Of a DNA stretch of 64,000 nucleotides, positions 4,624 to 41,429 are shown one piece after another. How positions within the stretch are numbered: the first letter of the stretch is position 1; the number at the start of each line of letters is the position of its first letter. The position numbers and the translations under genes are program-made. Origin of the DNA: Liolophura sinensis (taxonomy: Eukaryota; Mollusca; Polyplacophora; Chitonida; Chitonidae); the NCBI RefSeq assembly GCF_032854445.1, contig NC_088307.1:22940001-23004000 (forward strand), given 5' to 3'. Below the pieces are notes generated by a model. The model searched no databases, was not told the DNA's origin, and saw nothing but the letters and a program-made list of their open reading frames with translations.

Positions 4624-4645
4624 GTGAGGTCCACAGACCCAAAGC

Positions 4646-10000: not shown

Positions 10001-11813
10001 TGCATACAAATGTGTGCTTGTTCCTGCACCATACAGTAAAACTGAAATTAATTTTGATGATATTATTATTTATAAGATGTAGTGACTCCAGTGAAATGAA
10101 CAAATATTTTGATGTTTTTTTCTCAGTCCCTGTGGAATTTGTCCGAGCAACTGGGTGAGGTGAAAAAGAGAGGCATTAGCGAGGAAGAAATAGCAGAAAT
10201 CCCGACACGCGAGTTTCGGGGTTTGTGTGATGAGAAGGAAGAGTGTCGTATATGTCTGACAACATACGAGACACCTGACTGGCTAAGGACTCTCACCTGT
10301 AAACACGAATTCCACATGGCCTGCATCGACAAATGGCTACTGGTAAGCCCCTCTCTTCCTTCAGTTAACTTCAGAATGCTGAAAGCTGGGGCTTGTTTCA
10401 CGAAAAAGCATGTACGGTAAATGACCGAAAATTTAGCCTGCAAAAGTCCATTTTTAAAGACAAATAAATGCCATAAAATATGATATTTTGTACATTTTCC
10501 AGTAGTGTATCATTGTACATTACAACCAACCCTCAGAATGCCTTTGGAAGATCATTAAAACTCTGCTGAGACAGACAAAATGTGTAACCTAATCATGGGT
10601 GAAAGTTGAGGGCTTTTACAGTAGTGTTATGTGGAAGTAATCATGGCAACCAATACTGTAGGTATTATGTTGGCGTGGTAGCCACATGCATGTATCTCTC
10701 AGGTACACTTTGTCAAACAGAGTCACAGGTCTGTAAGTGGGAATCCAGCGCTCTGGTTCTTCTCATGACTCCTCTAAGGCAAACCTACCAGAATCTTTTT
10801 GGCTTGCCGTAAAAAAAAAAGTTTCATCCAAACTTACATCAATTTTTGTAACCAAAGAATATACATTTTTTCACATCGTTAAAGTTATCAACACAGAAAC
10901 TTGTAAATCTTTTCAGTGTTTAATGTGTGTATTAAAATCTTCCCTTGGAACAATATTATAGTACAAGATTTGTGTTCATTTATATAATTAGTGAGTGAGT
11001 GTGTGCTTGGGGTTTAATTTAATTTTATCAATTTATCAGTCATATGACGACGAAGGAATCCTTAGAGTGCATGTAATGTGCCTCCAGGATTGACTCTGGA
11101 TCTACCGCTCCCGAAGCGGATGCTCTACCAGCTGTGCTATCGGGGCCGGTTTTATATAATTAGTGTTCTATGCCATGCTCAAGAATTTTTTGACTGCTTC
11201 AGTGGATTAATGGTTAGAGTGCCAAAAGTCTGTCAAAGTCGGGAGTCCTCGGGACGAAGCCCGGGTCAGGCGATACCAAAGACTGGTTCTTGCTGCTGCC
11301 TCACTTGGTGCTCAGCACTGAGAGGTTAGAGCATGGAAACTGGACTGGTTGGCCTACTGTGAGAGGTGTGCGGTTTCATGTCTGGTGTCTTTGGCATGAT
11401 GCTTCAGTGATGGCAGCACTTTGGCGGCATGGACTTGCCCTGCCATAAGAAGACACAATATATCTATACTCACTTAATGCCTCCTGGTGATGGTATGACT
11501 GAGAAATTGTTAAGTACGACTTCAAGCCCCAAGCATGCATACAGACATACAAGAATATTGAACGGAAGGCATATAGTGGGAGGAAACCTGCTAGACTTGA
11601 ACTATATTCTGCTGATTTCTGATTTTGATTATCATTAAAAGAAAATGATGAAAATTAAGGCCTGGAAAGCATAGGAAAAAATCGTTAACTCTCTAAAAAT
11701 TGAACTGTCATGTCATGTTGAACTTGGTAATTATTCAAGCTTTTTTTTTTGTTTTCTGTTTTCAGGTAAATGCCACATGTCCCATTTGTAGACATTCTTT
11801 AGCCAAAGCATGA
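4646..11813 (+). CDS. RING-H2 E3 ubiquitin ligase, six coding exons
   Basis: Coding exons are 4646-7008, 7735-8018, 8612-8703, 9220-9309, 10127-10342 and 11766-11813. Every intron is GT..AG and the phases join to 3093 nt (1030 residues plus TGA). Residues 1 to about 880 are low-complexity Ser/Pro/Thr/Ala/Arg-rich and likely disordered. A leucine-rich helix follows in exon 4. The C-terminus is a RING-H2 finger with C983, C986, C1001, H1003, H1006, C1009, C1020 and C1023. It binds two zincs and recruits an E2 to ubiquitinate substrates. The segment before the RING (LGEVKKRGISEEEIAEIP) and the RING at the extreme C-terminus are the layout of the RNF38/RNF44/RLIM type; that assignment is inferred, not proven. 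The ATG is the first in the long frame. A 'cttcag' acceptor at 4618-4623 suggests an upstream non-coding exon. Substrates are unknown. Confidence 0.9.
7735..8018 (+). CDS. RING-H2 ligase coding exon 2 (Gly/Ala/Thr repeats)
   Basis: The frame requires the acceptor 'gttgtaag' ending at 7734. The better-looking 'ttttctttag' ending at 7720 would bring an in-frame TAA after three codons. The exon encodes a Gly/Ala/Thr-rich imperfect repeat (GATGG, GATAG and GATRG-like units), then PLPRSPDPLQRLIFF. The donor is TTAG|GTAAGT. Confidence 0.82.
8067..8283 (+). mobile_element. SINE family 1, degenerate
   Basis: tRNA-like head (gaggccttcgtggcatagtg), then diverged body and tail in intron 2 of the RING gene. 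Weak match to the family tail. Confidence 0.75.
8351..8476. repeat. Foldback repeat
   Basis: The left arm has gcgccatctggatgt...aagataactca at 8351-8390. The inverted right arm is at 8424-8476, with tgagttat...acatccagatggcac. Imperfect hairpin, about 126 bp, in intron 2 of the RING gene. Confidence 0.7.
8612..8703 (+). CDS. RING-H2 ligase coding exon 3
   Basis: A strong pyrimidine tract precedes the acceptor 'tttcttta g' at 8610-8611, and the donor is GTG|GTGAGT. The 92-nt exon restores phase 0 and encodes a polar Ser/Arg/Glu-rich stretch ending SPIQRLV. Confidence 0.85.
9220..9309 (+). CDS. RING-H2 ligase coding exon 4
   Basis: The exon is 90 nt, phase 0 on both sides, with acceptor 'tttttgacag' and donor GAG|GTAATG. 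It encodes a leucine-rich amphipathic segment (MFQLLLLIEDSLQLETL) and an acidic end (DLDDYE). Confidence 0.85.
9799..9985 (+). mobile_element. SINE family 1, internally deleted
   Basis: Head 'gggcctctgtggccaaggc' and body 'ggatggtcgtgggttttccc' are present. About 40 bp after the B-box region are missing. Lies in the intron before the RING exon. Confidence 0.85.
10127..10342 (+). CDS. RING-H2 ligase coding exon 5 (most of the RING)
   Basis: The exon is 216 nt, phase 0 on both sides, with acceptor 'tttttttctcag' and donor CTG|GTAAGC. It holds the pre-RING helix and six of the eight zinc ligands (CRIC...CKHEFHMAC), ending IDKWLL. Confidence 0.93.
10990..11150 (-). mobile_element. Short tRNA-derived SINE
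   Basis: The minus strand has a tRNA-like head with anticodon-loop-like TTCGGGA (Pro-CGG position) at 11084-11149. A tail ends 'aaaccccaagcacacactca'. The acceptor stem does not pair, so this is a SINE, not a tRNA gene. Confidence 0.7.
11195..11550 (+). mobile_element. SINE family 2, near full length
   Basis: tRNA-like head 'cttcagtggattaatggtta'. The body has 'catgtctggtgtctttggca' and 'catggacttgccctgcca', and the tail 'gtacgacttcaagccccaag'. Lies in the last intron of the RING gene, opposite in orientation to the short SINE beside it. Confidence 0.85.
11766..11813 (+). CDS. RING-H2 ligase coding exon 6 (last two RING cysteines)
   Basis: A 48-nt terminal coding exon after 'ttctgttttcag'. 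It encodes VNATCPICRHSLAKA and TGA, supplying the last CPIC pair of zinc ligands. The RING is therefore complete only after the 1.4-kb intron 10343-11765 is removed. Confidence 0.92.
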   Translation, partial: VNATCPICRHSLAKA

Positions 11814-13139: not shown

Positions 13140-14776
13140 ATGAACTGTTCGGTGAAACAGAGAACTGATTTGTCCCATGGTCTAGGTTGTATTGTGATGC
13201 CATGAACTGTTTGGTGAAACAGAGAACTGATTTGGCCCATGGTCTATGTTGTGGTGTGATGCCATGAACTGTTCAGTGAAAGAGAGAACTGATTTGGCCC
13301 ATGGTCTATGTTGTGGTGTGATGCCATGAACTGTTTGGTGAAAGAGAGAACTGATTTGGCCCATGGTCTAGGTTGTGATGTGATGCCATGAACTGTGTGG
13401 TGAGAGAGAGAACTGATTTGGCCCATGGTCTAGGTTGTGGTGTGATGTCATGAACTGTGTGGTGAAAGAGAGAACTGATTTGGCCCATGGTCTAGGTTGT
13501 GTGATGCCATGAACTGTTTGGTGAAACAGAGAACTGATTTGGCCCATGGTCCACGTTGTGGTGTGATGCCATGAACTGATGGTCATCAACTGAGACCAAA
13601 CATGGTCTAGGTTTTGGTGTGATGCCGTGAACTGTTTGGTGAAGCAGAGAACTGATTTGGCCCATGGTCTAGGTTGTGGTGTGATGCCATGAACTGTGGT
13701 GGAGCAGAGAACTGATCTGGCCCATGGTCTAGGTTGTGTAGTGATGCCATGAACTGTTTGGTGAAAGAGAGAACTGATTTGGCCCATGGTCTATGTTGTG
13801 GTGTGATGGCATGAACTGTGTGGTGAAAGAGAGAACTGATTTGGCCCATGGTCTAGGTTGTGGTGTGATGCCATGAACTGTTCGATGAAACAGAGAACTG
13901 ATTTGGCCCATGGTCTATGTTGTGGTGTGATGCCATGAACTGTTTGGTGAAAGAGAGAACTGATTTGGCCCATGGTCTAGGTTGTGATGTGATGCCATGA
14001 ACTGTGTGGTGAAAGAGAGAACTGATTTGGCCCATGGTCTATGTTGTGGTGTGATGCCATGAACTGTTTGGTGAAAGAGAGAACTGATTTGGCCCATGGT
14101 CTAGGTTGTAATGTGATGCCATGAACTGTGTGGTGAAACAGAGAACTGATTTGGCCCATGGTCTAGGTTGTGGTGTGATGCCATGAACTGTTTGGTGAAA
14201 GAGAGAACTGATTTGGCCCATGGTCTAGGTTGTGATGTGATGCCATGAACTGTGTGGTGAGAGAGAGAACTGATTTGACCCATGGTCTATGTTGTGGTGT
14301 GATGCCATGAACTGTGTGGTGAAACAGAGAACTGATTTGGCCCATGGTCTATGTTGTGGTGTGATGCCATGAACTGTGTGGTGAAAGAGAGAACTGATTT
14401 GGCCCATGGTCTATGTTGTGGTGTGATGCCATGAACTGTTTGGTGAAACAGAGAACTGATTTGGCCCATGGTCTAGGTTGTATTGTGATGCCATGAACTG
14501 TGTGGTGAAAGAGAGAACTGATTTGACCCATGGTCTAGGTTGTGATGTGATGCCATGAACTGTGTGGTGAAAGAGAGAACTGATTTGGCCCATGGTCTAG
14601 GTTGTGGTGTGATGCCATGAACTGTGTGGTGAAAGAGAGAACTGATTTGACCCATGGTCTATGTTGTGGTGTGATGCCATGAACTGTGTGGTGAAACAGA
14701 GAACTGATTTGGCCCATGGTCTATGTTGTGGTGTGATGCCATGAACTGTGTGGTGAAATAGAGAACTGATCTGACA
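13140..14776 (+). repeat. 62-bp satellite array
   Basis: About 26 head-to-tail copies of a 62-bp unit containing 'gatttggcccatggtctagg' and 'atgccatgaactgt'. Copies differ by a few substitutions. Irregular units with indels lie at about 13495-13620 and 13690-13740. The unit is not a multiple of three, so the many 60-residue minus-strand frames are by-products. Confidence 0.97.
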
Positions 14777-15480
14777 CATGGTCCAGTGTTTTGCTGGAAA
14801 ACTGAACCAACCAACTGTGCAGTGTAACTGAACCAGTATGACACATTGTCCAGTGTTTTGCTGGAAAATTGCTCCAAAACTGAATCAACCAACAGTGCTA
14901 TGTGAACTGTGAACCAATGTGACATATGGTCTAGTGTGTTACTGGAAAACTGAACCAACCAACTGTGTGGTAAAACTCTGAACTGATGTGACACCTGGTC
15001 CAGTGTTTTACTGGAAAACTGAACCAACCAACTGTGCATTGTAACTGAACCAGTATGACACATGGTCCAATGTTTTTCTGGAAAAACTGAACCAACCAAC
15101 TGTGCAGTGTAACTGAACCAGTATGACACATGGTCCAATGTTTTTCCGGAAAAACTGAACCATCCGACTGTGCAGTGTAACTGAACCAGTATGACACATA
15201 GGCCAATGTTTTTCCGGAAAGACTGAACCAACAAACTGTGCAGTGTAAATGAACCAGTATGACACACGGGCCAATGTTTTTCCAGAAAAACTGAACCAAC
15301 CAACTGTGCAGTGTAACTGAACCAGTATGACACACGGGCCAATGTTTTTTCCGGAAAAACTGAACCACTCATCTGCGGTGGAGGTGTGAATCGATGTGGT
15401 ATATGGTCCAGTGTTTTACTGGAAAACTGAACCAACCAACTGTGTGGTGAAACTGTGACACGTGAACCAGTAGTGTGCTA
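14777..15480 (+). repeat. 68-bp satellite array related to the 62-bp one
   Basis: About ten copies of a ~68-bp unit with 'catggtccaatgtttttc', 'aactgaaccaaccaactgtg' and 'aaccagtatgaca'. It shares the 'catggtc' and 'aactgtgtggtgaaac' blocks with the 62-bp unit and continues it without a gap. Confidence 0.92.
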
Positions 15481-16260
15481 GAAAACCCATGCAACCAGCC
15501 AGAAAATGTCTAATAAACAACAAACTGATTTGACGCAGGTTCAGTGTTGTACTGGAAAATTGATGCATTGAGCTGTATGAAACTGTGACCCGATGTGGAC
15601 ACATGATCCAGTGATTTGCTGGAAAACCGTTCCAACAAAGTGTCGTGTCAGCCAAACTGAAAGTGTCAGCCAAACTGAAAGTGTCAGCCGAATCAACCAA
15701 TGGATAACGGATTCAACCAACTTTGTGATGGAACTGTACCTGTGTCACACATGGTCCAGTTTTAAGCTAGAAAAACCAATCTAACCGAACATGTGCTGAA
15801 ACTGAACCAATGTGACACATGTTTTGCTTCAAAAACTGATTCAACCAGTAATGCCAAAAATGTTATGCTGGAAAATTGATGCAACCTGTCACATGTAAAC
15901 TAAAAATAGTTCAGGTCTCTGGTGAAACAAAGAACTGATGTGACACGAAGTCCAGTATTTTGCTTGAAAAATGTGGTGCGATCAGTGGTTCCATGAACTG
16001 TTCATTGAAAACAAAAGAACTGGTATGAATGTGACCCCCATTTTCCATGATTGCTGATGTAAGCAGTGGTTTTGGTGAAAGAAAGAACTGATGTCTGACA
16101 TTGTGCTATGTTACCGTGAAATGTTAATGTAACCAGTGATGCCACAAACTGTTTGCTGAAACTTTTTCTGGTGCAATTGAACTGGATTACTGACACACAG
16201 TCATGCCAGAGATTTCGTGGCACATTCAATGTAGCCTGAAGCAAAACCGTCCTGTTTGGT
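15481..16260 (+). repeat. Decayed satellite remnants
   Basis: Recognisable but scattered blocks (tgctggaaaa, tgtgacacatggtcc, gaactgatgtgacac) persist to about 16.2 kb. Three near-perfect 18-bp copies of 'gtgtcagccaaactgaaa' lie at 15640-15690. Confidence 0.7.
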
Positions 16261-20560: not shown

Positions 20561-21681
20561 TTATATGTATATAGCTCATCGTAATATTTTCATAAATTTC
20601 CTACAGGGCCTGAAAAATTAATTAGCATTCAGTTCACATCATTGATTTGCACTCATGTTCATGAAGTAGAAGGACAATATTGTATAACCTTCATGAAAGT
20701 AACAGATAAACCTCGCAAAATGTGTTATAAAATAGCAGTTATGTTTATTCAAGCACCAAGAGCAATCGTCGTCTTTTATAATGTTAAAAGGTTAAGATTA
20801 AAATGCAAGGGAGAATACACTCGTACATCCAGTGTGATGCATAATGACATTTACACCGGATTACTTGTTCCCCGTCAGAATATTTTGGAAAATTTGGTGC
20901 CGTCGGTGGAACAGTTTTCATTTTTCATTATCATTTTTTCGGCTATTTTTTTAAATGATAATCTCACCTTTTGTGACAATTTCTGACCAAAAAAACGAAA
21001 TAATGATGCACAGAGACCGGATGTCCAAAGAGTCAATAAATGTCATGTGTATGCAAATGAATTGTTCCAGATTTATTGTTCATCTGCATGTCATGTCGGG
21101 CGACAAAATATAGTCACGATGTACAATACTAAACAACGTCACAATCGACAGGCCCTGGCAATTTTTATATTCACTACTTCTTGTTTTAAAAATGACTTAG
21201 CTGGATATAAGGAATGGTCAATGGAACAAATTGCACTGCATTTGCAATTCCCAGGCCAATGTAACGTACAAATGAAAACACAATTACAAAACTGTTTTAG
21301 TCTGAATCCGTTGGATTAATGCCTCGTTTATAAATGAATAGTTTGAAATACGAAATAAGGTTCACGATGTTCTGAACCGATTTCTTTGGACACAATCAAA
21401 TGAAACTGTTATTTGCATATCAGGTGATGGATAGCAGTCTGCCATGTAGAAAATGTGAAACAGTTTGCAAAGATATCAATTTGTAAGGGTTCCTCAATTC
21501 CCAACCACATCAATTTGCAATCGATCCTCAATTATGCTTGATTCACACCAAGTAATTTATACTTTGAAAACTTTCCAGTAAGAATGAAATAAAATCCCCC
21601 TCTTCTTTTATAAATTATCTTTGTTCGCATATGTGCCACAGCCGTCGGTTTTATGTTTGTGTCATTTTTTCTGGGTTTACC
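20561..21681. other. 3' flank of the WAP gene
   Basis: AT-rich, no gene seen. On the minus strand an AATAAA at 21072-21077 is a possible polyadenylation signal 605 bp after the WAP stop codon, and a CATAAA-type hexamer lies nearer. The choice is not resolved. Confidence 0.4.
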
Positions 21682-22766
21682 TCATGACAACACGGGGGCC
21701 AGGCAGCGGAAATCGCCACAGCGTGTTTTGCAGCACATGGTTTGACCCGTGCAGTTAGTGTGTTGCTTGCAGGTTGGGTTTGAAGAATACACAAAGCTAC
21801 AGACTAACATGTTCATGATGTTGAGTTGGGAACCCGGTGTTTGCGTGGGCATTAAGGTGACCGCGGGACATGATGCCAATTTGGGGGGCACACGCACGCG
21901 GTCCGGCCGGTCCGTTACAGGGTCTGGGGCATCCTGTACGAACAAGGGTCTACTGCTTTCTCTGGACAAAAGTGGGGTCTTGCATTCGTTGAGATTACAC
22001 CTTCCGGGACAGCATTTCTTTACTTCCGGACATGTGGCGTCGATCTTGCAGTCATTGATTTTTGCCCTAAGATAAGGACAGAGGAACTGCCAGTGTTGAT
22101 CCTCAGGCGGGCAGGTGCCGGGTTTCCGGCTGCTTGGTTTGGATATGACAACTGGCGGGATCACATTAGAGGGTGGCTTGGTCCCTGCAATAGCTACGAT
22201 TGTAACATTGGGTTTATTGGTGGGCACAGGTGGGCCTGCAGACCCCGTCACCGTGGCGTTAGGTTTGGTTTTAGTGTTGGCAGCGTTCTCATCGGGCATT
22301 GTGCATTCCTGAAGTTCACAACGGCCTGGGCAGCACTTCCGGTCTCCTAAGCAGTCTCTGTCCGTTTTACAGGTTGTTATCATACTTGTTAGGAAAGAGC
22401 AAACGCTGTTAACCCAGCTAGATTTTGTAGGGGGACAAGTTCCAGGTTTGGAAAATCGGTGGTTGGCGCGAGAGATAGCCTTGTTGATGTACAACTCGTT
22501 CGCTTTGCCGCCCCCGGCTAGAAGTAGAACCGGAGCAGGAGATGTATTTTGCTTCTTTCTGGTGGATGTTCCTAAACGCACGATAGCTGGTTTCTTTTTG
22601 AAGATGGTGTTTTGGCATTCCTTAAACCGACACCTCCCTGGGCAACACTTTTGGGTGCCGCTGCAGTGGTTGTCTTGGTAACAGTTAGGTAGGAACTCTG
22701 CCAAAGCGTCACAGTCCATACCGATGGCCGTGCTTGGTGGCGGAGGGCATCGTCCTTCTTTTCTCA
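21682..22766 (-). CDS. WAP gene exon 4 (four WAP domains)
   Basis: The frame is open upstream to 22779, but the 'gttatccag' acceptor places the exon start at 22766. WAP1 runs from GRCPPPP to CRFKEC, WAP2 from GTCPPTK to CELQEC, WAP3 from GTCPPED to CNLNEC and WAP4 from ASCPAVT to CGDFRC. Each has the C-C-C-C-CC-C-C pattern with x5 between C3-C4 and C4-C5. The C1-C2 gap is longer than in vertebrate SLPI-type WAPs, most of all in WAP4. Confidence 0.93.
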
Positions 22767-25700
22767 CTGGATAACACATACAGTGACAGATATAAGAGAA
22801 TAATGTTATTTAAAGCCATACACTCAAAAAAATCATCTGTTAATTTTAACAGAAAGTCTGTTAAGTGATGCTAGAATGTTTTCTATTACAACAGAATACT
22901 CTGTTAAATATAACGCACATATTCTATTAATTTAACTTAAAGATTTGTGAATCAAGAATTATTCATTTATACGATGGTGATAAGTTTTATGCGTGGAGGA
23001 AAACCGACCTTTGACATGTTTCAGATAAACTTTCCAAGGTGTTGGGTCCCAGACATGCACAACATTCTGATGGAAGACAAATGGTCTTCAACGAACGTTA
23101 GATTGTGCCAACGCCCACTCAAACTTCGCCGGCCGGTTATTGTCAACAAGGCACCATGAATGGTGGGATAATTGTGCACAAGAGAATATTTATTTATTTA
23201 TTTATTTCATTGGTGTTTTGCGCCGTACTCAAGAATATTTCACTTATACGACGGCGGTCAGCATTATGGTGGGGTGAAACCGGGCAGAGCCCGGGGAAAA
23301 CCCACGACCATGGGTCATAACGCTATGCTAGCGCGCTAACCAACTGAGCCACGGAAGCCCCCACAAGAGAATAAATTACAAAGCGACATACAAGTGATAA
23401 TATTTTTTTCTGTAACATCTTGGGTTGGTGTTTTGATATCAGTATTACTTTTTCAAGCTGGCTTACTCTCTGTTCGTACGTGGGATTGTGCTTCAGCAAC
23501 CTGCGGATGGTTATGGGTTTCCCCCGGGCTCTGCCCGGTTTCCGTCCGCCGTAAAGCTGGCGACGTCGTATTCTTCAGTATGGCGTAAAACATCAATCAA
23601 ATACATAAATATGTATTACTTGTTATTCTTTCACTGGTGGCATTCAACCCTAAATGAACTGTATGAATTCCAGTCTTTGACATGGTTAGGTCTGCGTATG
23701 GATGTCTGTTTTAGTTTAGGTTAACCTCTTAATCTAAAATATAATGGTTCAGACGCAGTCTTTGACAAGGAATTCTTAGATATCCCGCTCTTTGGTGGTT
23801 TATCACGTGCACTCTGGTTTCCACAACCCATGAGACTGATCGCCATGTATGTGAAAAACTCTTAATTATGTATGTCGTTAAGTAACAATCAAATATATAT
23901 TAACAAATAGTCCGCGGGGTGAGGTAGCGAAGGTGTTTATAATATGACCTATAAAGGTTACACATGCACATGTGTTTTACGCCGTACTGAAGAATATTTA
24001 ACTTATACGACGGCGGCCAGCATTATGATGGGAGGAAACCGGGCAGGGTCCGGCGGAAACCCACGACCATCCACAAGTTGCTGACAGACCTTCCGAGTTA
24101 CGGCCAGAGAGGAAGCCAGCATGAGCTGGACTTGAACTCACAGCGACCGCATTGGTCCTACACCCTTGGAGGTTACCAAGGTAACAAAATACTATGACTT
24201 CACTTCCTGCAAGCACAGTTAAAAAAATGCTGATCATGCAAGGTTAAATTTTCTAGAAAAAAGTGCAAGCAGCATGTCGTGGTATGACATGGGTTAGTTG
24301 ATATATGTTATTGACGTTGAAGTTGACAAACTTTACTACATACATATTAAGGAAAATCAATGCGCTCGTGTGACCTATAAAAGTGGACTACTTACCAATC
24401 GGCACGCAGGCCACTTTTAAACAAGGTCGTCCTAAGCACGTGGCATTCCGGAAGTCACATGTTTGTGATATGTTACATCTCAAGTCCTGGAACCAGAAAA
24501 ATCATCATTCATACAGAACTACATGTATTCCAATTCCAGTCAATCTAATTCGCTGCTGTAATGCTGTACTGATTTGCGGTATATGGAATGTATTCTTTAT
24601 TCTTAGACGTCAACCATTATAACGGAGATGGTTAGCGCGCTAGCGCAGCGTAATGACCCAGGAGCCTCTCACCAATGCGGTCGCTGTGAGTTGAAGTCCA
24701 ACTCATGCTGGCTTCCTCTCCGGTGGTAAGTGGGAAGGTCTGTCAGAAACCTGCGGATGGCCGTGGTGATATTGTCATAATTTGCCACGTGCATTTGTTT
24801 ACATCATAGCACATGTGTATGTTTACATCACATGACCAGCTCCCCTATATTAATATTCATGACGATGCAGCATAGCGATTGGATAATAATACGAAAGTAA
24901 CATACTGCGGGACTGCTCAAGGTGATGAACCGAGTGGAATAGAGTGAATGTCTGAAAGGAGACGCTGATTCGAATCCTTTATTTATTTATACTTTCTTAC
25001 GTCAAAAGACGGTAACATAAAAGTATTACATGGTGTCAGACGTTCAGAAGAACCCTCGAGATGGCAGCAAAAGTGAAACAGATGTCTTCCATGGATTTCG
25101 ACAGCGGTAATGATAGAGACATATGCAGAGCATGGCGTTCTTGTGGTGAACTTTCAGAGGAAGATTCCAAGAAGCCAGAGAAACTGTTCGAACTTTTCGA
25201 GTGCTACTGCAACGCGAAAAAAAAAAACACGTCAGTACAATGTAAGTTATTTTATCACCAGGTCAATGTCAGTCAGAATCGATAGACGAATGGGTCACTC
25301 AGTTAAAACTCATTGGCCGTGACTGAAGTTTCATGATCTAGACGACATGATTAAAGACAGGATTCTTATGGGCTCAAATTCATCTGCAATTCTAGGAAAA
25401 ACTCCTCTTAGAAGATGATCTGACTCTAGAAAAAGTAACAAAAATTGCCAGGGCTCATGAAATATCACGTGAACAATTGAAAGTGTTGAACAAAACTCCC
25501 GATGAAGTCCACGATGTAAAATATGAACATAAGAAGTCAGAAACTTGCCCAGCAATGGGAAAAAAAATTGTATGAAATGTGGCATCAAAAGTCATTTCAG
25601 GAGAATGTGTAGGTCTAAATCAGCCCATGCTGTTTGTGAAGATAATCATAACACAGATACTGACACTGAAAACAATGTGGTGTTTTTGGTACAGTTAACA

Positions 25701-28700
25701 AAACTGAAAACAACGGAAATGAAGCTTATGCAAACATTGAAATAGGAAACACAGGCAAAACTCTCAGGTGTAAACTGGATACTGGAGCACAGGTAAACTG
25801 CATTCCCACAGAAACATACAAAAAGACTACTGTCAAGCGAATTACCTCTACAAACACGCTTTCTCCCCAAGTTGTCAGGATATGGTGGTAATCAACTCAA
25901 AGTCACAGGTAAATGCATGGTACCATGCAAGTACAGAAACATTATTCAGAACTTAGAGTTTGTAGTTGTGAATAGTCCAGCGAAACCCCTCCTAGGTTTC
26001 AACGCCTGTAAGTGCTACACCTGGTGAAAGTGGTTATGACAATTGATCAACCAATCACAAATCAGTTTTTGAGAAAGAATCAGTGGTCAAGGAGAACAAG
26101 GATATCTTCACAGAGCTTGGTTGTCTTCCAGGAAAAGCCAAAATTAGACAAAAGAAAAAAGACAACACACTAGCAGTTGTGCACGCACCACGGCGTGTCC
26201 CCGTAGCATTAAGGGATCGTGTCAAAAATGAACTAAAACGTATGGAGTCAGTGGGCGTTATCATGGCCATTGACGAGCCCACAAAATGGGTAAGCTCAAT
26301 GGTGAAAAAAGACAACACACTGCGGATATGTATCGACCCGAAGGATTTGAACGAAAACATAATGCGCGAGCACTATCAACTTCCTACATTGGAGGACATA
26401 ACACATAAACTGCCAGGTGCGAAGTACTTCAGTCGGCTCGATGCAAAATCCGGGTACTGGCAGATCCAGCTAGATGATGAAAGTAGTAAACTCACAACAT
26501 TTAACTCTCCCTTTGGCAGGTGGGCATTTACACGCTTACCTTTTGGTCTTGTATCAGTCCAGGAAATATTTCAAAAGAAAGCACATGAAGCTCTGAAAGG
26601 TCTCAACGGGGTTGAGGTCTTGGTTGATGACATTCTGGTCTACGCACCAACCAGAGAACTGCACGACGAGCGACTCAGAGAACTACTTCAGAGATGCCGT
26701 GACAAAAACCTTCACCTGAATTCTGCAAAAATGGAAATTGTGGTCACAGAGACAAAGTTCTACGGACACACTCTCACGTCGGAAGGTCTGAAACCTGACC
26801 CAGGCAAGATTAAAGCGATTGAACAGATACCGACCCCTACCTCGAAAAAGGAACTGGAAACGGTGATGGGTATGATCAATTACCTCACCAAGTTTGCCCC
26901 AGGACTTGCCACAGCCACAGCTCCAATAAGAGAACTCTTAAAAGAAGATGTGGAATAGCTATGGGACGCAAATTGTGACAAAGCATTTGAACAGGTGAAA
27001 TCCATCATAACGCGAACACCAGGACCGGTGTTAGCGTACTATGACGTCACCAAGGACGTCACCCTCCAAGTAGACGCGTCATTCTTCAAGAAGGCAAACC
27101 AGTTGCCTGCGCCTCACAAGCACTTACGCCGACACAGCAAAGCTATGCACAGATAGAAAAAGAAATGTTGGCAATTCAGTTTGGGTGTGAGAAGTTTCAT
27201 TCTTATATCTAGGGAAAACAAGTGACAGTGCACAGTGATCACAAGCCCCTTGAGATAATCATGCGCAAACCACTGGCTTCAGCACCACCCAGACTACAGC
27301 GCATGATGCTGCGCTTACAGCTCTACGATTTGAACGTAGTTTTTCGCCCCGGAAAGAAAATTCCGATTGCGGACACACTGTCGAGAAATTACAAATCTGG
27401 ACATGACGCACATGAAGATCCAACTCTGGAAGAGCACATTCATGCAGTATTTGAACGGATCCCAGTAACTGATCAAAAGCTGGAAAAAATCAAATCGGAA
27501 ACACAGAAGGATCAAACTCTCATCAAACTTAAATCTGTCATTCACAGAGGCTGGCCACAGACTAAACAACAAGTAGACGCTGATATGAGAGAATTCTGGC
27601 ATGTGCGAGACGAACTGACTGTTTTGAACGGCATAGTTTTCAAAAGTGACAAAATTGTGATTCCAGCATAATTGCATGCCGGCATGCTGCAACTTATACA
27701 TGCAGGACATTTCGGCATGGAACTTTGCAAACGACGTGCTAGAGAATTTCTCTACTGACCGCACATGTGTTCACAAATTGAGGACTATGTGAACAGATGT
27801 AGCACATGTCTTGAACACAGATCCTCCCTACCGAAGGAACCGATGATGTCACCGCCGATACCAAACGGGCCATGGAAATTGTTAGCCACAGACCTGTTTG
27901 AGTGGCACAACCATAATTATCTCATTGTGGCTGATTATTATAGTCACTATTCTGAGATCAGCCTGTTACCTAATATCACCGCCAACAGTGTCATCAATCA
28001 CATGAAATCAATCTTTGCCCGGCACGGCGTATGTGAAGAACTGATATCTGACAATGGAAGCCAATACACATCTGCAGAATTCAAAAGATTCGCTGCAGAA
28101 TGGGGTTTCAAGCACACCATGAACAGCCCCTACCATCACCAATCTAACGGACTTGCTGAAAAGTATGTTGGTATAGCAAAACAGATCATGAAGAAAGCCC
28201 AGACCGATGGTTCTGACCCGTACATGGGATTGTTAGTCTACAGAAATACACCCACTGATTTAACCGCTACACCAGTTCAACTCCTAATGAGTCGTCGCCT
28301 TCGAGACAACCTCCCAGTCCAACAGAAACGGCTCGGTCCATCTGTACAAAACGTAAAAGATGTACAAAGGCGACTTTCACATAAACGGATGAACAGTAAG
28401 ATATACTACAACCGTAACACCCAGTCTCAAAAACCATTAAAGGAAAGAGAGGATGTCTACATGCAACAACCCAATGGGAAATGGAAACCAGCGATAGTGA
28501 GAAAAGTAGCCGAGATACCACGATCATATATTGTCTCCACATCTGGTGGTGGAAATTATCAACGGAACCGTCGTCACATCATTCCGTCCAAACCAGCCCC
28601 GCTAGCCAACAGTCCGAACAACAAATCAACAGGTTCGACACCTCCGCTGCTGGAAAACCCAACTCCTCCTGAGACTCCGAAACCACCTGACACATCTCCA

Positions 28701-31700
28701 ACTTCACAGTTCTCACGTTATGGTCGACGTATTAAGCCCAAGACTTTATCTGATTTCATAACTGGATAAAGTGGAAGTCTGTGTGTGTTATTGTGAGCAC
28801 AGTTTGTTTTGCTCTCAGTTTTAGATCTCAGTCAGAATTCCAGCTCCAACAGTGAATTTGTGAATCAGTGATTAATGTGTGCATTCTGTTCAGTTCATTG
28901 GATTCTATCATTCCACGGCATTGAAATGAGTGATGCATTTACAGATAGGTTCAGTTTTTCCATCACTCAGATTCATGGATTTGTATGATTCAAAGTGCTA
29001 TGATAATTTTATTTGCTATGTTAAATTGTTCCGAGTTGTGTGATCTTGACATTCTTATGAAAGTTTAATGGATGGATAAATTTGTGTTTAGCTTTAAAAC
29101 CTGGTGAACCCTGGATATCATTTGACAGTTTACTCCAACTCAAGTTTTAAGTATCAAACCGACTCTACAAATACTTACAGTTTGCAGTGTATTCTATTTT
29201 GTTTTAAATTGAAATTTGTTGCATTTGAAAAGTATACTTGGGAAATCCTTTCGAAGCGAAGTTTGTTAAAGAATGTAATACCACTAGTTTTTCTTCAAAA
29301 GAAGGGGGATGTGATATTGTCATAGTATGCCACGTGTATTTGTTTACATCATAGCACATGTGTATGTTTACATCACGTGATCAGCTCCCCTATATTAATA
29401 TTCATGACGTTGCAGCATTGCGATTGGATAATAATACGAAAGTAACATACTGCGGGACTGCTCAAGGTGATGAACCGAGTAGAATAGAGTGAATGTCTGA
29501 AAGGAGACGCTGTTTCGAGTCCTTTATTTATTTATACTTTCTTACGTCAAAAGACGGTAACATAAAAGTATTACAGATTTCCCCCGGGCTCTGCCCCGAT
29601 TTTCTCCCACTATAATGCTGGCCGCCGTCGTATAAGTGAAACATTCTTGGGTACGGCGTAAAACACCAATCAGATAGATAAATATAATGGAGGTTACGTG
29701 CATGAGGGTGGTGAAAATCACTCAGTGTTGAATTGTACAAAAGTACGTTCTGGAATTGGTGGCGTTCTTGAGACTTAACATCTCTCCTTTCAAAACAAGA
29801 AAACACGTTGTCTTAAATTCAATATCTTTCCTTAGTCAAGCCTGAATAAACTAAAATGTCATGTGGAAAGCAAACGGTACAGTAATCAGCAGCCAATTCT
29901 ACATTGCTGCCTGTATACAGATAATAATGCCACAAAACGTTCTCCAGAAAACGCCATATTAAATAACTCCCCGATTACGTTTCTGAGGTATAAGTGAAAT
30001 GGAATGGTTTTGTAGCCTATTTCCTTAATTTAAGAGATTAAGAAGATTAAGATTTTCCTTAATTTAAGAGATTAAGAATGAATGAAAAGAATGCTTGGCG
30101 TTTAAGCTCGTAGTTAACAATTTTTCAGTTATGTGACGACGAGGACTCATTATGTGCGTGTACATATACTGTGTCTTACTGTGGCACCAAAGTGCCGCTG
30201 GCACTGATATATCATACCGAAGACACCAGACATGACACCCCAGCCAGTCGCATTACACCGAAATCGGCTCAACTAGTCAAGTTTCCGGTCGGCCACTGCT
30301 ACCATCGGAAATACGGGGGTGATTTAGCGTACGTGGTATTAAAGACTGAATATGTATGGCATCCGTGATTTGTTGTATTGCATTCATTTTTTTTTTTAAA
30401 CACAAACTTTGTAAATAAACCGAGGAAAATAATCTTAGTATTTATTGCAGTATTATCAGAATTATCTTGTAATCGTGTGGATTCAATTTTGTACGCACGT
30501 GGGAAGGTCTGGCAGCAACCAGTCAGGGGTTTAACGCTTAAACTCTGCTTTGTAAAATGTTTCGGATACTCTTTAGGAGTAACACATACTTACCCCACAT
30601 TGTTCCATGGCCTCTGTAAACTCCAGCATAGGCTGCATTTGGCGCTGGCCATAAACACCCTTTAAGAAGGAAAAAAAAGACACAAATTAGGATTTCATTA
30701 TTGTCAAAAATGCTTTTACCAAGGCCCTTAAAAATAGCATGATGGCGGCCAATTCACGGACGGAGGACACAGTTGTAAACCATAGACCTTTGGCAGGTAA
30801 CTCACGAGCTTTCCCACTTGTGACGCACAGTTTTTCTCCAGCGGAGCAAGCTTATATAATATGTATTGGTGGAAGCTAAGCAGTCGGCATGGAAGCTAAG
30901 TGGTCGCCATAGAAGCTAAGTGGTCGCCATAGAACGACAATGTAAGACCAGATAAAACAGGAATATGAAATACTGTGAACGGTTTTTTGTTGTTACTATG
31001 GAGGTTACGTTCTTGATTTCGTTGTCGGCACCCTTCATTCTCATATCACTACAATGAAAACTCCGTGAGAGCTGCTTAGTGCTGCTGGAAAAAAAATAAA
31101 TAAACATGAATTTATTTATTTATTTATTTGATTGTTGTTTTACGCCGTACTCAAGAATATTTCACTTATACGACGGTGGCCAGCATTATGGTGGGTGGAA
31201 CCAGGCAGAACCCGGTGAAAACCCACGACCATCCACAGGTTGCTGACAGACCAAACAAACATGAAGAATACACACAAAAACATTTGTGTTGAAATCTAAC
31301 ACAACAACTTATGTTGTTTCACTCAGCATAGAAATGTGTTACCCCAACACAAACACACATATGTTAAATAAATGTGAAGTACACATGTTTGTGTTACAAA
31401 ATAATAAGACACAAACAAGATCGTGTGTTAATTCAACACAAGACAGAGTTGTACAAATATGACTGACACAAGATTTGTGTTGGAAAGAACACGAGTTTGT
31501 GTTCACAAGTGTTTTTTGTGTGTTCCGTAAATAGTAATCGGTAACAGCAGCAAGAAAATTAAAAAAAGAATCTACCCCCTGCCCATCCCCCCAAAAAGTA
31601 AAACAGAAATTAAAAATAACAACTTAGAACGGCAACTTTAATTTGGGTACCCCGAGCCATCTATTGCAAGATACTAGTATATACAAGAGCCATGTCGAAT

Positions 31701-33644
31701 AGATAGCATTACAGATTCGACAACTGCCTCTCACATTCAGCGATGCATCATCTTTCATTATGAATAGTTATAGCTACTAGAAAATATTAATTAATAAGTA
31801 ACAGAATAATGAGTACAGTATTATATTAACCATCTATCAAATGCATATATTAATAATATTATTCTGATATCTCATTCTGATATACTAACTGGTATGTCGC
31901 ACGTGCCGTTTTTCCCTTTTCCTAATTACAAGCGTATTAATGAGTTGTCGCCCTTGAGAATAACGTCAATCTGACGTCAATGGACAAGATGTCATAAGTA
32001 TATGGATGCATTCTGTACATCTGCTTTCTTGTGTTTCCGGTTTTTTTGTGTGAAAATATTGTTGACCGGAAGTGTAGGTTATTTGTTTGTTAACGTCAGC
32101 CCTATAAATGTCCATCAATCAACAAAGGTGGATTTATTTTTTTTTTCGACTGGTGTTTTGTGTCGTACTCAGGAATAGTTTTCTTACGATGGTCAGCATT
32201 ATGGTGGGAGGAAAATGGACAGAGCACGCAGGAAACACACGACACCAAAATTGCACTTTAATATGTTCAACTTAACATGGTCAAAGGATATAAGGCAGTC
32301 ATTCTGTATTTATTGAATTTATAGAATTTGTGGTCAGCAAATCAAATCAACACCATTTTAATGTTAAGTTGAATAAAACACTAACACTATTGTTTAAGAT
32401 ATATACCGAACTCTACTATTTTGTGCATAACCAGAAACATCGAGAGTTCGAATCCAGCTCTCGCCCCGGGGTTTAGTCCGACGGTTTGTGGAATTGCGAT
32501 GTTTCCCCTAGATTTCATCTATTGATAAATCTGAAGTTCAACAAGTACTGTGCATTTATTAATGTACTGAGCTCATTATGCGAAGGAAATTAAGAGAAAG
32601 TGAGGAATATAGATTGAAAAATGAGTGTAAAGAACTTATCTGGGAAGCGGTTGATGGTCAAGATATCTTTGTTACTGAGATACAAACATAGGCCTATACT
32701 TCGTGGCAAATGACAGTTACAAATGATGAATAAAGCCTACAGATATAGCCTCTTGTCTATTATCCCCCGAAATTGAAACTGAAGATTGAAACAAGACTGA
32801 TGGTTTAAGCATATAGCGGGGTACACCATGCAATCAGAGATCTATTACAGTGCGACCTCACTGCTCGCCCCTAGTGCCTCAAGGAATGGGATCGGGGTTC
32901 ACATGGAATGGAGAAACAAGATCCCAGGCATTTAGACAAAATAAAACTCTATTGTTAAGAGTCATTTATTGTTCGTTTTTTTTTATATAATGTGTACGCT
33001 TTCTTTTCAAAGAGAAACGTTTCAGGTAAAGTTGTTTTCGATCGTTTAATTTTTTCTTTTCAGTACGAATTATAAATTTAACCGAAACACGGAAGCTTTC
33101 TAAATATATACAAGAGGCTATTAGCTTCGCTGGGAAGAACCGTTTTCTCTTTCCTACAGACCATTCTGTGAAAAGTAGCTTATTTTCAGCACCAACTATC
33201 GTCAATCAAAACGATTTAAACGGATAGCGTTACGAAAAAATACATTGATTCAAGGTTTTAATAAAGAAAAGTTGCAGGTAAATCCTTAACATTCATGTTA
33301 ACACAAAATCATTGTTGTAAATTTTACACAAGTTAAAATTGCTCTCTGAAATCAGTTTATTTCAAACTTTGAGGAATGAAAGCCTCGCAAAGCTCAATAT
33401 AAACCTTCATTTGTTTTTCTGTGTCTTAGTTGTGTATAAACATAAAATGAAGCTACACCCTGATTTCTTCTATCAAAAATTTCTAACCGCTATCGTGTAA
33501 ATGGAAGCGCCTTAAGGAAGGCGTTAAATAATCAATCAACCAATCAGTCAATCATAAAACGGTGTTAGTTTCAATTAGTATCAAATAGGCCCATAACTAC
33601 GATGTACTCACGTAAATGGCAATAAAGATGAGGATATACTTCAT
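21682..33644 (-). CDS. Secreted four-WAP-domain protein, four coding exons
   Basis: On the minus strand the exons are 33644-33612, 30659-30594, 24486-24396 and 22766-21682 (33+66+91+1085 = 1275 nt, 424 residues plus TGA). All junctions are GT..AG and phases match (0, 0, 1). The start MKYILIFIAIY plus GVYG of exon 2 forms a signal peptide. A six-cysteine module follows (CGDLRC...CVPI), then four WAP domains, each with eight cysteines and the core KCCPGRC or MCCKTRC. They are separated by Thr/Pro/Lys-rich linkers. WAP proteins are typically protease inhibitors, antimicrobials or, in molluscs, shell-matrix components. Which of these applies cannot be told here. The protein is probably extracellular and disulfide-bonded. 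Confidence 0.9.
22825..22940. repeat. Short inverted 'CTGTTAA' cluster
   Basis: Repeated ctgttaattttaacag-type palindromic motifs next to the last intron's acceptor in the WAP gene. Confidence 0.5.
23188..23362 (-). mobile_element. SINE family 1, internally deleted, with target-site duplication
   Basis: Both ends are intact (tail 'cgccgtactcaagaatattt', head 'gcgctaaccaactgagccac'). About 100 bp are lost between 'cacgaccat' and 'gggtcataacgc'. Flanked by cacaagagaata at 23177-23188 and 23362-23373. Confidence 0.92.
23453..23610 (+). mobile_element. SINE family 1, 5'-truncated
   Basis: Begins in the body (tcaagctggcttactctc) and ends 'cgtaaaacatcaatcaaata'. Confidence 0.85.
23971..24160 (-). 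mobile_element. SINE family 1, lacking its head
   Basis: Tail 'gttttacgccgtactgaaga' through 'cagcgaccgcattggt'. Ends before the A-box region. Confidence 0.88.
24396..24486 (-). CDS. WAP gene exon 3 (six-cysteine module)
   Basis: A 91-nt exon with acceptor 'tttttctggttccag' and donor ATTG|GTAAGT on the minus strand. It starts in phase 0 and ends in phase 1, matching the TG-starting acceptor of exon 4. It encodes DLRCNISQTC then CLGRPCLKVACVPI. With the Cys of exon 2 the spacing is C-x4-C-x5-C-x6-C-x4-C-x4-C. Confidence 0.85.
24620..24766 (+). mobile_element. SINE family 1, 5' half (split by the LTR element)
   Basis: Head 'ggttagcgcgctagcgcagc' to body 'acctgcggatggccgtgg', where the LTR begins. 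The other half resumes at 29576. Confidence 0.92.
24767..25030 (+). repeat. 5' LTR
   Basis: Starts TGATATTGTCATA and ends TATTACA, so it has canonical TG..CA ends. It contains TATTAATATTCATGA and a pyrimidine/AT-rich 3' end. Confidence 0.92.
25061..25745 (+). pseudogene. Retrotransposon gag, broken
   Basis: The frame starts with ATG at 25061 and breaks at the A-run near 25217. A gag-like segment (SIDEWVTQLKLIGRD) continues in another frame but hits stops. A CCHC zinc knuckle (CMKCGIKSHFRRMC, C-x2-C-x4-H-x4-C) lies at about 25565-25610. Several frameshifts and stops make it non-functional. Confidence 0.8.
25745..26080 (+). pseudogene. Retrotransposon aspartic protease remnant
   Basis: A retropepsin active-site motif (KLDTGAQVNCIP) is encoded at about 25770-25806 between the zinc knuckle and RT. 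Frame breaks flank it and no continuous protease frame remains. Confidence 0.7.
26083..26958 (+). pseudogene. Retrotransposon reverse transcriptase, truncated by a stop
   Basis: 291 codons cover most RT motifs: LRICIDPKDLN, FSRLDAKSGYWQI, FTRLPFGL, the catalytic LVDDILVY (position usually [YIV]VDD), and YGHTLTSEGLKPDP. The frame ends at TAG 26956-26958 where a tryptophan is expected. The downstream sequence LWDANCDKAFEQVK continues the same domain, so the stop is a mutation. Confidence 0.92.
26959..27400 (+). pseudogene. Retrotransposon RNase H, broken
   Basis: TLQVDAS at about 27060 starts the RNase H domain. About eight residues expected next are missing and the frame shifts near 27083. 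QSYAQIEKEMLAI and VTVHSDHKPLE follow, with an in-frame TAG at about 27210 between them. Confidence 0.82.
27400..28769 (+). pseudogene. Retrotransposon integrase, with two internal stops
   Basis: The zinc-binding N-terminus spans stops at 27669-27671 and about 27758. The catalytic core is open from 27765 to 28769: D in ATDLFEW, D in SDNGSQYTS and E in HHQSNGLAEK. The C-terminal part is Pro-rich, ending with FSRYGRRIKPKTLSDF. The core is intact, but the N-terminal breaks mean no full-length protein. Confidence 0.9.
28770..29309 (+). other. Retrotransposon 3' untranslated leader to the polypurine tract
   Basis: No ORF of note. AT-rich spacer ending in the purine run aaaagaaggggga used to prime plus-strand synthesis in this class. 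Confidence 0.6.
29312..29575 (+). repeat. 3' LTR
   Basis: Same length and ends as the 5' LTR, with about 96% identity counted by eye. It may begin two bases earlier (TGTGATATTG at 29310). Confidence 0.92.
29576..29683 (+). mobile_element. SINE family 1, 3' half (split by the LTR element)
   Basis: Starts 'gatttcccccgggctctgcc', exactly where the left half stopped, and ends 'cgtaaaacaccaatcaga'. Confidence 0.92.
29684..30089. other. Intron sequence, no feature seen
   Basis: AT-rich intron 2 of the WAP gene. A partial duplication of 'aatttaagagattaagaa' lies near 30025-30075. Confidence 0.4.
30090..30270 (-). mobile_element. SINE family 2, partial
   Basis: Contains 'tgtacatatactgtgtctta' and 'gacaccagacatgacacccc', the reverse of the family 2 body, with a diverged tail. 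Confidence 0.75.
30594..30659 (-). CDS. WAP gene exon 2
   Basis: A 66-nt exon, phase 0 on both sides. On the minus strand it has acceptor 'cttttttttccttcttaaag' and donor GGG|GTAAGT. It encodes 22 residues beginning GVYGQRQMQPM and ending EQCG, giving the end of the signal peptide and the first cysteine of the six-cysteine module. Confidence 0.78.
30775..30850 (-). mobile_element. SINE family 3 fragment
   Basis: 'ggcaggtaactcacgagctt' and 'cccacttgtgacgcacagt' are the reverse complement of the segment seen at 16680-16745. Confidence 0.55.
30871..30930 (+). repeat. Three copies of a 20-bp unit
   Basis: 'ggaagctaagtggtcgccat' repeats three times with few changes in intron 1 of the WAP gene. 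Confidence 0.9.
31111..31252 (-). mobile_element. SINE family 1, head missing
   Basis: Tail TTTATTTATTTATTTG then 'cgccgtactcaagaatattt' to 'atccacaggttgctgacaga'. Confidence 0.88.
31260..31525. repeat. Cluster of inverted AACACA/TGTGTT motifs
   Basis: More than a dozen alternating 'aacacaa' and 'ttgtgtt' motifs over 265 bp, able to form many small hairpins. Directly abuts a truncated SINE. Confidence 0.6.
32132..32246 (-). mobile_element. SINE family 1 fragment, diverged
   Basis: 'ggtgttttgtgtcgtactca' to 'gcattatggtgggaggaaaa'. Older and more mutated than most copies. Confidence 0.75.
32247..33600. other. Intron 1 of the WAP gene, remainder
   Basis: AT-rich. A SINE-like 3' tail (aggcgttaaataatcaatca) lies near 33515-33535. 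Nothing else recognised. Confidence 0.4.
33612..33644 (-). CDS. WAP gene exon 1 (signal-peptide start)
   Basis: The 33-nt coding part encodes MKYILIFIAIY and ends at TAC|GTGAGT in phase 0. The context 'ccatcaccATG' is a good start. It joins in frame to exon 2, whose first residues GVYG complete a classic hydrophobic leader. Confidence 0.8.
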
Positions 33645-36429: not shown

Positions 36430-37560
36430 GCTCTGTGCATATTTACTGGTAAAGTGTAAAACTTAAGAAATTGAGAAAGAAGGTGTTTGATGGAATAACC
36501 TCGACACATTAATTTTCACAGTAATAACTTGTGACGCTGATTGAAATCGTCACACAAAACACAGGATAGAAAAAACGCTACAAGGTGCGATACGTACACG
36601 CCATATGCAGGACCCTGCGGTATATTGTTGTCCAAGTAAGGGTAAATTATGATGTCAGATTTGAAACTATCCCCTTTATCGAAAAGTCTGCTAGAGAGGT
36701 AACCGCTTTGGCTCTTGTACAAATTTAGGTCTTGAAAAGATTTAGAATCTGGAGAGTCTGCGGTTTCCTTTGAAATCAGCGAAGGTGGGTAAATGTCTGG
36801 TATGTATTCTATATACTGACTGTTTAAAGCTGCTAGATCACCAGTATACTGCTTAGTGAAGGAGGAAGATCGGACCTGGTGAGGAGAACTCCTTAATAGT
36901 TTCTGCAGCTAGTCGTATGCAAACAAGGAACAGGCATTTGTCGAACAAAAGGGGGTCACAATTTGTACCCATCGGAATACCTATACACTCCTGATATATG
37001 ATTACCCCGAATTTCAAGTACGGTAAATGTTATAAGTGAAAAATTCCAGCAACTCGATGGACAAAAAAATATCCTGTCAACGAAATATACCCATGTAGTG
37101 GAACTGCAGAAGGCTTTGTTGCCTTTGACGTTAACGTAGCGGTGACCAGTTTTGTTAAACACCGATGCAGTTAGTGATGAAATTCTATCTATTAAGTCTG
37201 TTTGAGGAATAGTAGTATAGAGGGTAGAGAAATCTCAAGTAGAGATGCCCTTGTATTGTCTGTGTACATGTATATGAGCGTCTAGTTCTTCAGTCAGATA
37301 TTTTGGAGTTTTTAAGAATCCATATACAATTGACGAATGATTTTTTGGCAATTGCTTAAGAGCGCTTTTTACAGAATGGCTGTACTTGTTGCACTGCCTC
37401 CGTTAAGTGAGTTTTCTGGTACAGGTTTTGGACATCGAAATGAAAGGAACTTTGTATGGAGATATATGCCTTAGTGGAATCCAGTAAAGTTGTATTATGT
37501 TGGTGTGACGAGAAGGTCCGGATATACTCCTCTGTGTGAGAAATGACTGATACCGTACAT
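36430..37560 (-). pseudogene. Reverse transcriptase fragment, multiply frameshifted
   Basis: Minus-strand pieces in different frames: WILKNSK near 37310, FSTLYTTIP near 37200-37235, VFNKTGHRYVNVKG near 37130, CIGIPMGTNCDPLL near 36945-36985 and NIPQGPAYGVYVSHL near 36585-36630. CRGYSIKHLLSQFLKFY lies near 36465-36510. Order and motifs (STLYTTIP, GIPMGTN, PAYGVYxSxL) fit a known metazoan retroelement RT of Penelope/non-LTR type. Exact family is not resolved. It lies between the two satellite blocks and is dead. Confidence 0.75.
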
Positions 37561-40323: not shown

Positions 40324-40618
40324 AAATTTTGTCGATAGAGATTAGGCTTAAGTCTAGAAACCCGATGGAGTTAGCACGCCAACGCGGTACAATGACCCAG
40401 GAGCCTCTCACCAATGCGGTCCCTGTGAGTTCAAGTCCACTTCAAGCTGGCATCCTCTCCGATCGTAAGTGGGAAGGTCTGTTAGCAAACTGTGGATAGT
40501 CCGTGGGTTTCCCGCGGGCCCTGCCCGGTTCCCTCCCACCATAATGCTGACCGCCGTCGTATAAGTTAAGTATTCTTGAGTACGGCGTAAAACACCAACT
40601 AAGCAAATAAATAAATAA
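40324..40618 (+). mobile_element. SINE family 1 with 5' extension, left arm of an inverted duplication
   Basis: Extension 'gtcgatagagattaggctta' then 'cccgatggagttagcacgcc' and a full SINE body to 'cgtaaaacaccaactaagca'. Reverse-complement match at 40726-40950. Confidence 0.88.
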
Positions 40619-41036: not shown

Positions 41037-41152
41037 AAGTGAAAAAATACGATAAATAATTAAAAACCTACGTCTGTATTGGCAAGAATCCCACAATGCC
41101 ACCGTAAGCAACAACCGAAGAAGGGGACCACCATGATCTTAGTATGCATGCT

Positions 41153-41429
41153 TACGTCTGCGGAGTCGGTTAGCGCGCTAGCGGAGCGTAATGACCCAGG
41201 AGTCTCTCACCAATGCGGTCGCTGTGAGTTCAAGGCCAGCTCATGCTGGCTTCCTCTCCGGCCGTACGTGGGAAAGTCTGCCAGCAACTTGCGGATGGTC
41301 GTGGGTTTCCCCCGGGCTCTGCCCGATTTCCACCCACCATAATGCTAGCCGCCGTCGTATAAGTGAAATATTCTTGAGTACGGCGTAAAACACCAATCAA
41401 ATAAATAAATAAATAAATACGTCTGCGGA
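41153..41429 (+). mobile_element. SINE family 1 with 12-bp target-site duplication
   Basis: Flanked by tacgtctgcgga at 41153-41164 and 41418-41429. The body is near consensus, with AAATAAAT tail; the first few head bases are missing. Confidence 0.95.

What the first reader, a model, noticed from the sequence alone, without database searches (positions are those of the whole stretch)
21682..33644. A four-WAP secreted protein gene assembled from micro-exons over 12 kb
A 33-nt leader exon, a 66-nt exon and a 91-nt exon are far smaller than ORF finders detect. They join in phase to the long WAP exon with consensus splice sites, giving 424 residues. Simple annotation would start the gene in the wrong place (22779), lose the signal peptide and miss the six-cysteine module.
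Basis: partly seen in the sequence, partly recalled or inferred. Interest (0 to 1): 0.7.

Follow-up and report, generated by a model that had tools for sequence, protein, structure and literature searches.

The report
Ordinary spliced gene, four-WAP secreted protein

Summary
Minus-strand coding exons 33644-33612, 30659-30594, 24486-24396 and 22766-21682 join in phase into 424 residues plus a TGA stop. The two inner exons are the only open internal exons (30-250 nt) on that strand reaching their splice-site score; the plus strand has six. Under strict thresholds, set after seeing the sites, theirs is the only chain with a hydrophobic leader; 0 of 19 control stretches and 0 of 100 simulated sequences give any chain. 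At looser thresholds other first exons compete.

Corrections: these are not micro-exons; '33 nt' is only exon 1's coding part. Three WAP domains pass Pfam's cut-off alone; the fourth (18.9 against 20.8 bits) keeps the cysteine spacing. A 4.8-kb LTR retrotransposon, inserted in a SINE in intron 2, inflates the 12-kb span.

Multi-WAP proteins are known in molluscs. The N-terminal six-cysteine module matched no Pfam family above cut-off and no PDB sequence. No transcript or relative was available, so function is inferred. New member of a known kind; low interest.

The parts
33612..33644 (-). Coding part of exon 1: MKYILIFIAIY, start of the signal peptide; donor GTGAGT
   Evidence: donor score 6.5 bits
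30594..30659 (-). Exon 2, 66 nt, phase 0-0: GVYGQRQMQPMLEFTEAMEQCG (end of signal peptide, first cysteine of the N-terminal module)
   Evidence: top-scoring open internal exon on the minus strand
24396..24486 (-). Exon 3, 91 nt, phase 0-1: DLRCNISQTCDFRNATCLGRPCLKVACVPI (five more cysteines)
   Evidence: second-best open internal exon on the minus strand; skipping it gives TGA at the junction
21682..22766 (-). Exon 4, 1085 nt: four WAP-type modules with T/P/K-rich linkers, stop TGA
22603..22761 (-). WAP domain 1
   Evidence: Pfam PF00095, 34.6 bits, cut-off 20.8
22291..22455 (-). WAP domain 2
   Evidence: PF00095, 37.8 bits
21970..22131 (-). WAP domain 3
   Evidence: PF00095, 33.3 bits
21685..21885 (-). 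Divergent WAP domain 4
   Evidence: PF00095, 18.9 bits, below the 20.8 cut-off; cysteine spacing C2-C8 identical to domains 1-3
21072..21077 (-). Candidate polyadenylation signal AATAAA about 600 nt after the stop (position counted from offset 604)
   Evidence: motif match only
24767..29575 (+). LTR retrotransposon inside intron 2, antisense to the gene (boundaries good to a base or two); not part of the gene but the reason for its length
   Evidence: LTR pair 24766-25030 / 29311-29575, 255 of 265 identical; reverse transcriptase and integrase matches above cut-off, RNase H below cut-off
24626..24766 (.). Left piece of the SINE-like repeat interrupted by the LTR element (approximate outer boundary)
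   Evidence: joined flanks align across the junction to other copies, best 41161-41411 at 90%
29576..29690 (.). Right piece of the interrupted SINE-like repeat (approximate outer boundary)

Best explanation
A normal four-coding-exon animal gene on the minus strand (from its repeats and relatives, probably a mollusc; this is recall, not a test) encodes a secreted, disulfide-rich, basic protein. It has a signal peptide split across exons 1-2, a short six-cysteine module split across exons 2-3, then three clear and one divergent WAP four-disulfide modules in one long exon, joined by T/P/K-rich linkers. Shown: the open, in-phase, splice-consistent structure and the WAP matches. Inferred: transcription and secretion. 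Inferred and less sure: that it acts outside the cell as a stable multi-knot protein of the perlwapin-like kind (shell or mantle matrix about 0.4; defence or protease inhibition about 0.35; mucus, adhesive or other about 0.25). An LTR retrotransposon landed in a SINE in intron 2 and lengthened the gene without touching an exon.
For: Exon junctions and 424-aa frame. The two inner exons are the only two on the minus strand at their score. One hydrophobic chain in the region, no chain in 19 control stretches or 100 simulated sequences. WAP in Pfam, E 2.6e-19, with 4 stretches counted at E up to 10; 3 of 4 domains pass the cut-off alone. Cysteine spacing 10, 6, 6, 1, 4, 5 from C2 to C8 is identical in 4 of 4 modules. 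Skipping exon 3, or exons 2 and 3, gives TGA at the junction. Multi-WAP matrix proteins occur in Lottia and Haliotis (passages). Split SINE around the LTR element: 21 of 29 aligned pieces cross the junction.
Against: No transcript, orthologue or genome was available. The leader donor and exon 4 acceptor are unremarkable, the chance thresholds were set after the fact, and at looser thresholds other leaders join in frame. WAP domain 4 is below Pfam's cut-off alone. The fold predictions for domains 3 and 4 were poor (mean pLDDT 46.1 and 45.2) and give no support. Nothing tests the function.
Confidence: 0.83

Rival explanations
1. The WAP exon and exons 2-3 are real, but the true first coding exon is elsewhere upstream.
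For: At looser thresholds, up to 46 kb, other in-frame leaders with a hydrophobic stretch exist. The clearest is an ATG at 41149 or 41134 with a donor at 41071, joined to exons 2 and 3. 14 of 39 hydrophobic chains have six or more cysteines at thresholds 6/6/5, and 83 of 329 at 5/5/5. The leader donor is only 6.5 bits.
Against: At the two strictest settings the proposed leader gives the only hydrophobic chain (1 of 8 chains; 1 of 18). Of the 12 chains printed of the 14 at 6/6/5, 9 use an exon inside the LTR element (26.7-26.9 kb). The proposed junction also completes a normal cleavage site (VYG|Q).
Confidence: 0.1
2. The gene is a decayed copy, with some exons kept only by chance.
For: No expression evidence; the fourth WAP domain is divergent.
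Against: 1275 nt are open with all 32 WAP cysteines in place and splice sites intact.
Confidence: 0.04
3. The product is mainly an elafin/SLPI-type serine protease inhibitor.
For: WAP domain 3 is nearest in sequence to elafin among solved structures, weakly (E 0.013). WAP domains in mollusc proteins are often discussed as protease inhibitors (passages).
Against: In the C2-C3 stretch the four modules lack elafin's CAMLNPPNRC loop (seen in the alignment); they read CDALAEFLPNC, CSFLTSMITTC, CPYLRAKINDC and CSFVYSSNPTC. That this loop carries the reactive bond is recalled.
Confidence: 0.25

Closest known systems
Lottia gigantea shell-matrix WAP proteins (Lotgi1|143247, 201804, 239125; PMC3374290, passages read)
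   Same: Multi-WAP proteins of a mollusc; 143247 is described with four complete WAP domains after an N-terminal partial WAP with four cysteines.
   Different: The N-terminal module here has six cysteines, no CC pair, and does not match WAP. 201804 and 239125 also carry antistasin-like domains; none matched here.
Perlwapin (Haliotis; PMC2989941 passages read; the original paper was not held)
   Same: Tandem WAP modules.
   Different: Three WAP domains against three clear plus one divergent here; no evidence here of presence in a shell.
Elafin / SLPI / nawaprin
   Same: WAP four-disulfide core; weak sequence matches to elafin and nawaprin.
   Different: No elafin-type LNPPN loop; four modules and a separate N-terminal module.
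Mammalian trappin genes (PMC2831891, passages read)
   Same: A separate first exon encodes the signal peptide, followed by a WAP-coding exon.
   Different: Here four WAP modules share one exon, and two small exons lie between it and the first exon.

Membership tests
WAP four-disulfide core proteins (PF00095) | Profile match above Pfam's curated cut-off | tested here: met
   Whole protein 69.6 bits against 20.8; single domains 34.6, 37.8, 33.3 and 18.9, so 3 of 4 pass alone
WAP four-disulfide core proteins (PF00095) | Eight cysteines with the CC pair in WAP order | tested here: met
   4 of 4 modules
WAP four-disulfide core proteins (PF00095) | WAP fold | tested here: inconclusive
   AlphaFold2 on 4-sequence alignments, mean pLDDT 46.1 and 45.2
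Perlwapin-like shell matrix proteins | Secreted tandem-WAP protein | tested here: met
   signal peptide by hydrophobicity and the -3/-1 rule only
Perlwapin-like shell matrix proteins | Found in the shell; inhibits growth of calcium carbonate crystals (from the title of the original paper as cited in PMC3374290) | not testable with these tools
   needs proteomics and an assay
Perlwapin-like shell matrix proteins | Orthology by sequence | not tested
   no mollusc sequence collection was on hand; no genome was held
Elafin/SLPI-type inhibitors | Elafin-type inhibitory loop between C2 and C3 | tested here: not met
   compared by eye with the elafin alignment; 0 of 4 modules carry it
Microexon genes | Internal exons of about 30 nt or less (limit recalled) | tested here: not met
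   internal exons are 66 and 91 nt

The most novel reading that the evidence does not exclude
The six-cysteine module encoded by exons 2-3 (cysteine steps 5, 6, 7, 5, 5) is an undescribed, lineage-specific disulfide module fused to an in-exon expanded WAP array. Only Pfam and PDB sequences were searched for it; no literature search was made for the module.
Probability: 0.15. Interest if true: 0.3.

Novelty: new member of a known kind. Interest (0 to 1): 0.12.

Why it matters
It matters little beyond annotation. It shows that a signal peptide and a small cysteine module split over two short exons can be recovered from raw sequence, and that much of the long intron is a transposon. If the N-terminal module proved to be a recurring, undescribed fold in mollusc matrix or defence proteins, it would be a modest find.

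Tried and rejected
Searching the window's own genome for paralogues: none held. Relatives in viral contigs: 2 stretches matched a pattern, none confirmed. Naming the host by its SINE sequence in full texts: 0 papers for 4 strings. The mollusc assignment therefore rests on recall of such SINEs and on the mollusc literature for multi-WAP proteins. Folding WAP domains 3 and 4: too poor to use, so no fold search was made. ARAGORN (bacterial code) and Rfam at gathering scores: nothing in the window. A target-site duplication around the LTR element: only short matches of 4-5 bases at shifted ends, none convincing; the empty-site join into a SINE is better evidence. TATAAA motifs starting 641 and 542 bases before the ATG were not used as evidence. 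A bacterial promoter and terminator scan is not relevant to this genome. I considered that the N-terminal module resembles follistatin-type or other invertebrate six-cysteine motifs; that is recall only and untested. Literature searches for WAP proteins and exon definitions: (listings; passages read only).

Full report
Observation. Reading the minus strand at the stated places gives coding exons 33644-33612 (33 nt), 30659-30594 (66 nt), 24486-24396 (91 nt) and 22766-21682 (1085 nt), with GT-AG junctions throughout. They join in phase (0, 0, 1) into 1275 nt, that is 424 residues and a TGA stop. One search printed four trial joins with other exon-4 starts (22767-22770): three showed stops in the printed part; 22769 stays in frame but has no AG before it. 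The open frame runs back only to 22809, and only one AG in it (before 22766) has the right phase, as read.

Chance. Exactly two open internal exons of 30-250 nt on the minus strand of the whole window reach the summed score of the weaker proposed exon, and they are the two proposed ones; the plus strand has six. The 91-nt exon is the only one at that score, on either strand, of 120 nt or less with five or more cysteines. A chain search (leader, two inner exons, phase-1 exit) over 36000-22767 found 8 chains, 1 with a hydrophobic start, which is the proposed one. 19 control stretches (13 plus, 6 minus, overlapping one another) gave 0 chains and 100 first-order Markov sequences gave 0. These thresholds were chosen after seeing the observed scores. 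Extending to 46000 with looser thresholds gave 1 hydrophobic chain of 18 chains (7/7/6), 39 of 323 (6/6/5) and 329 of 2305 (5/5/5); of these 1, 14 and 83 have six or more cysteines, of which at most 12 per setting were printed. No controls were run at the looser settings. So exons 2-3 are strong, and the leader is likely but the least certain part. The leader donor (6.5 bits) and exon 4 acceptor (4.7 bits) are matched or beaten by 85 of 3932 GT and 484 of 3415 AG sites on the minus strand, themselves included.

Exon-skipping logic. Skipping the 91-nt exon, or both inner exons, puts TGA at the junction; skipping the 66-nt exon keeps the frame but loses the signal cleavage region and one cysteine; reading into intron 1 stops after four further codons.

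Protein. Pfam finds WAP in the whole protein (E 2.6e-19, four stretches counted at E up to 10). Alone, domains 1-3 pass (34.6, 37.8, 33.3 bits) and domain 4 does not (18.9 against 20.8). All four modules share the C2-C8 steps 10, 6, 6, 1, 4, 5; C1-C2 is 12, 12, 11 and 23. The part from residue 16 on (409 residues, 38 cysteines) has a calculated pI of 9.0, and six N-glycosylation motifs were found in the whole protein. The N-terminal six-cysteine module matched no Pfam family above its cut-off (only match: DUF5965, 12.1 bits, cut-off 25) and no PDB sequence at E up to 10. NCBIfam was not searched, since one search failed on my coordinates. The nearest solved sequences to the whole protein are elafin (E 0.013 and 0.015) and nawaprin (E 0.24), all weak. 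Structure predictions of domains 3 and 4 failed (mean pLDDT 46.1 and 45.2).

Why 12 kb. Introns are 2952, 6107 and 1629 nt. Intron 2 holds an LTR element: LTRs 255 of 265 identical, no gaps, with reverse transcriptase (6.2e-23), an RNase H match below its cut-off (19.6 against 24.8 bits), and integrase (7.3e-12) on the plus strand. Joining its two flanks restores one SINE-like repeat; of 29 aligned pieces elsewhere in the window 21 cross the junction, the best at 90% over about 252 bases at 41161-41411 (counted on the 24767 boundary). So the element entered an existing SINE. Without it the gene would span about 7 kb (arithmetic).

What it is and does. This is an ordinary secreted multi-WAP protein. 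WAP proteins are reported from shells of Lottia (three proteins, one with four complete WAP domains and an N-terminal partial one), Haliotis (perlwapin, three WAP), Lymnaea (one protein with two WAP) and Cepaea (one WAP) (passages read), and a limpet adhesive-mucus protein carries WAP plus antistasin-like domains (passages). I give shell or mantle matrix about 0.4, defence or protease inhibition about 0.35, and mucus, adhesive or other about 0.25; these cannot be told apart from sequence alone. The elafin-type loop is absent in all four modules by eye (alignment).

The assembly was right and careful. 'Micro-exons' is not the right term, the 33-nt exon is only the coding part of exon 1, the fourth WAP is divergent, and much of the length is a transposon. 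In my judgement nothing here would surprise a specialist.

Noticed in passing
24767-29575: LTR retrotransposon with 96% identical LTRs, plus strand, pol split over several open frames, inserted inside a SINE-like repeat in intron 2 of the WAP gene.
   Followed up: yes
window-wide, e.g. 41161-41411, 57095-57319, 40370-40617: Many copies of one SINE-like repeat: the joined flanks gave 29 aligned pieces in the masked window at E 1e-5 or better, some of them parts of one copy.
   Followed up: partly
10103-10417 (+): RING-finger exon (Pfam zf-RING_2, 35.7 bits); a long serine/proline-rich open frame without Pfam match at 0.01 lies upstream at 4631-7063 and may be the same gene.
   Followed up: partly
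36519-37234 (-) and 50760-51026 (-): Fragments that look like retroelement reverse transcriptase and RNase H by eye; no Pfam match at 0.01.
   Followed up: partly
13368-15712 and 60734-61836 (-): Internally repetitive open frames that look like tandem repeats read as protein rather than genes.
   Followed up: no
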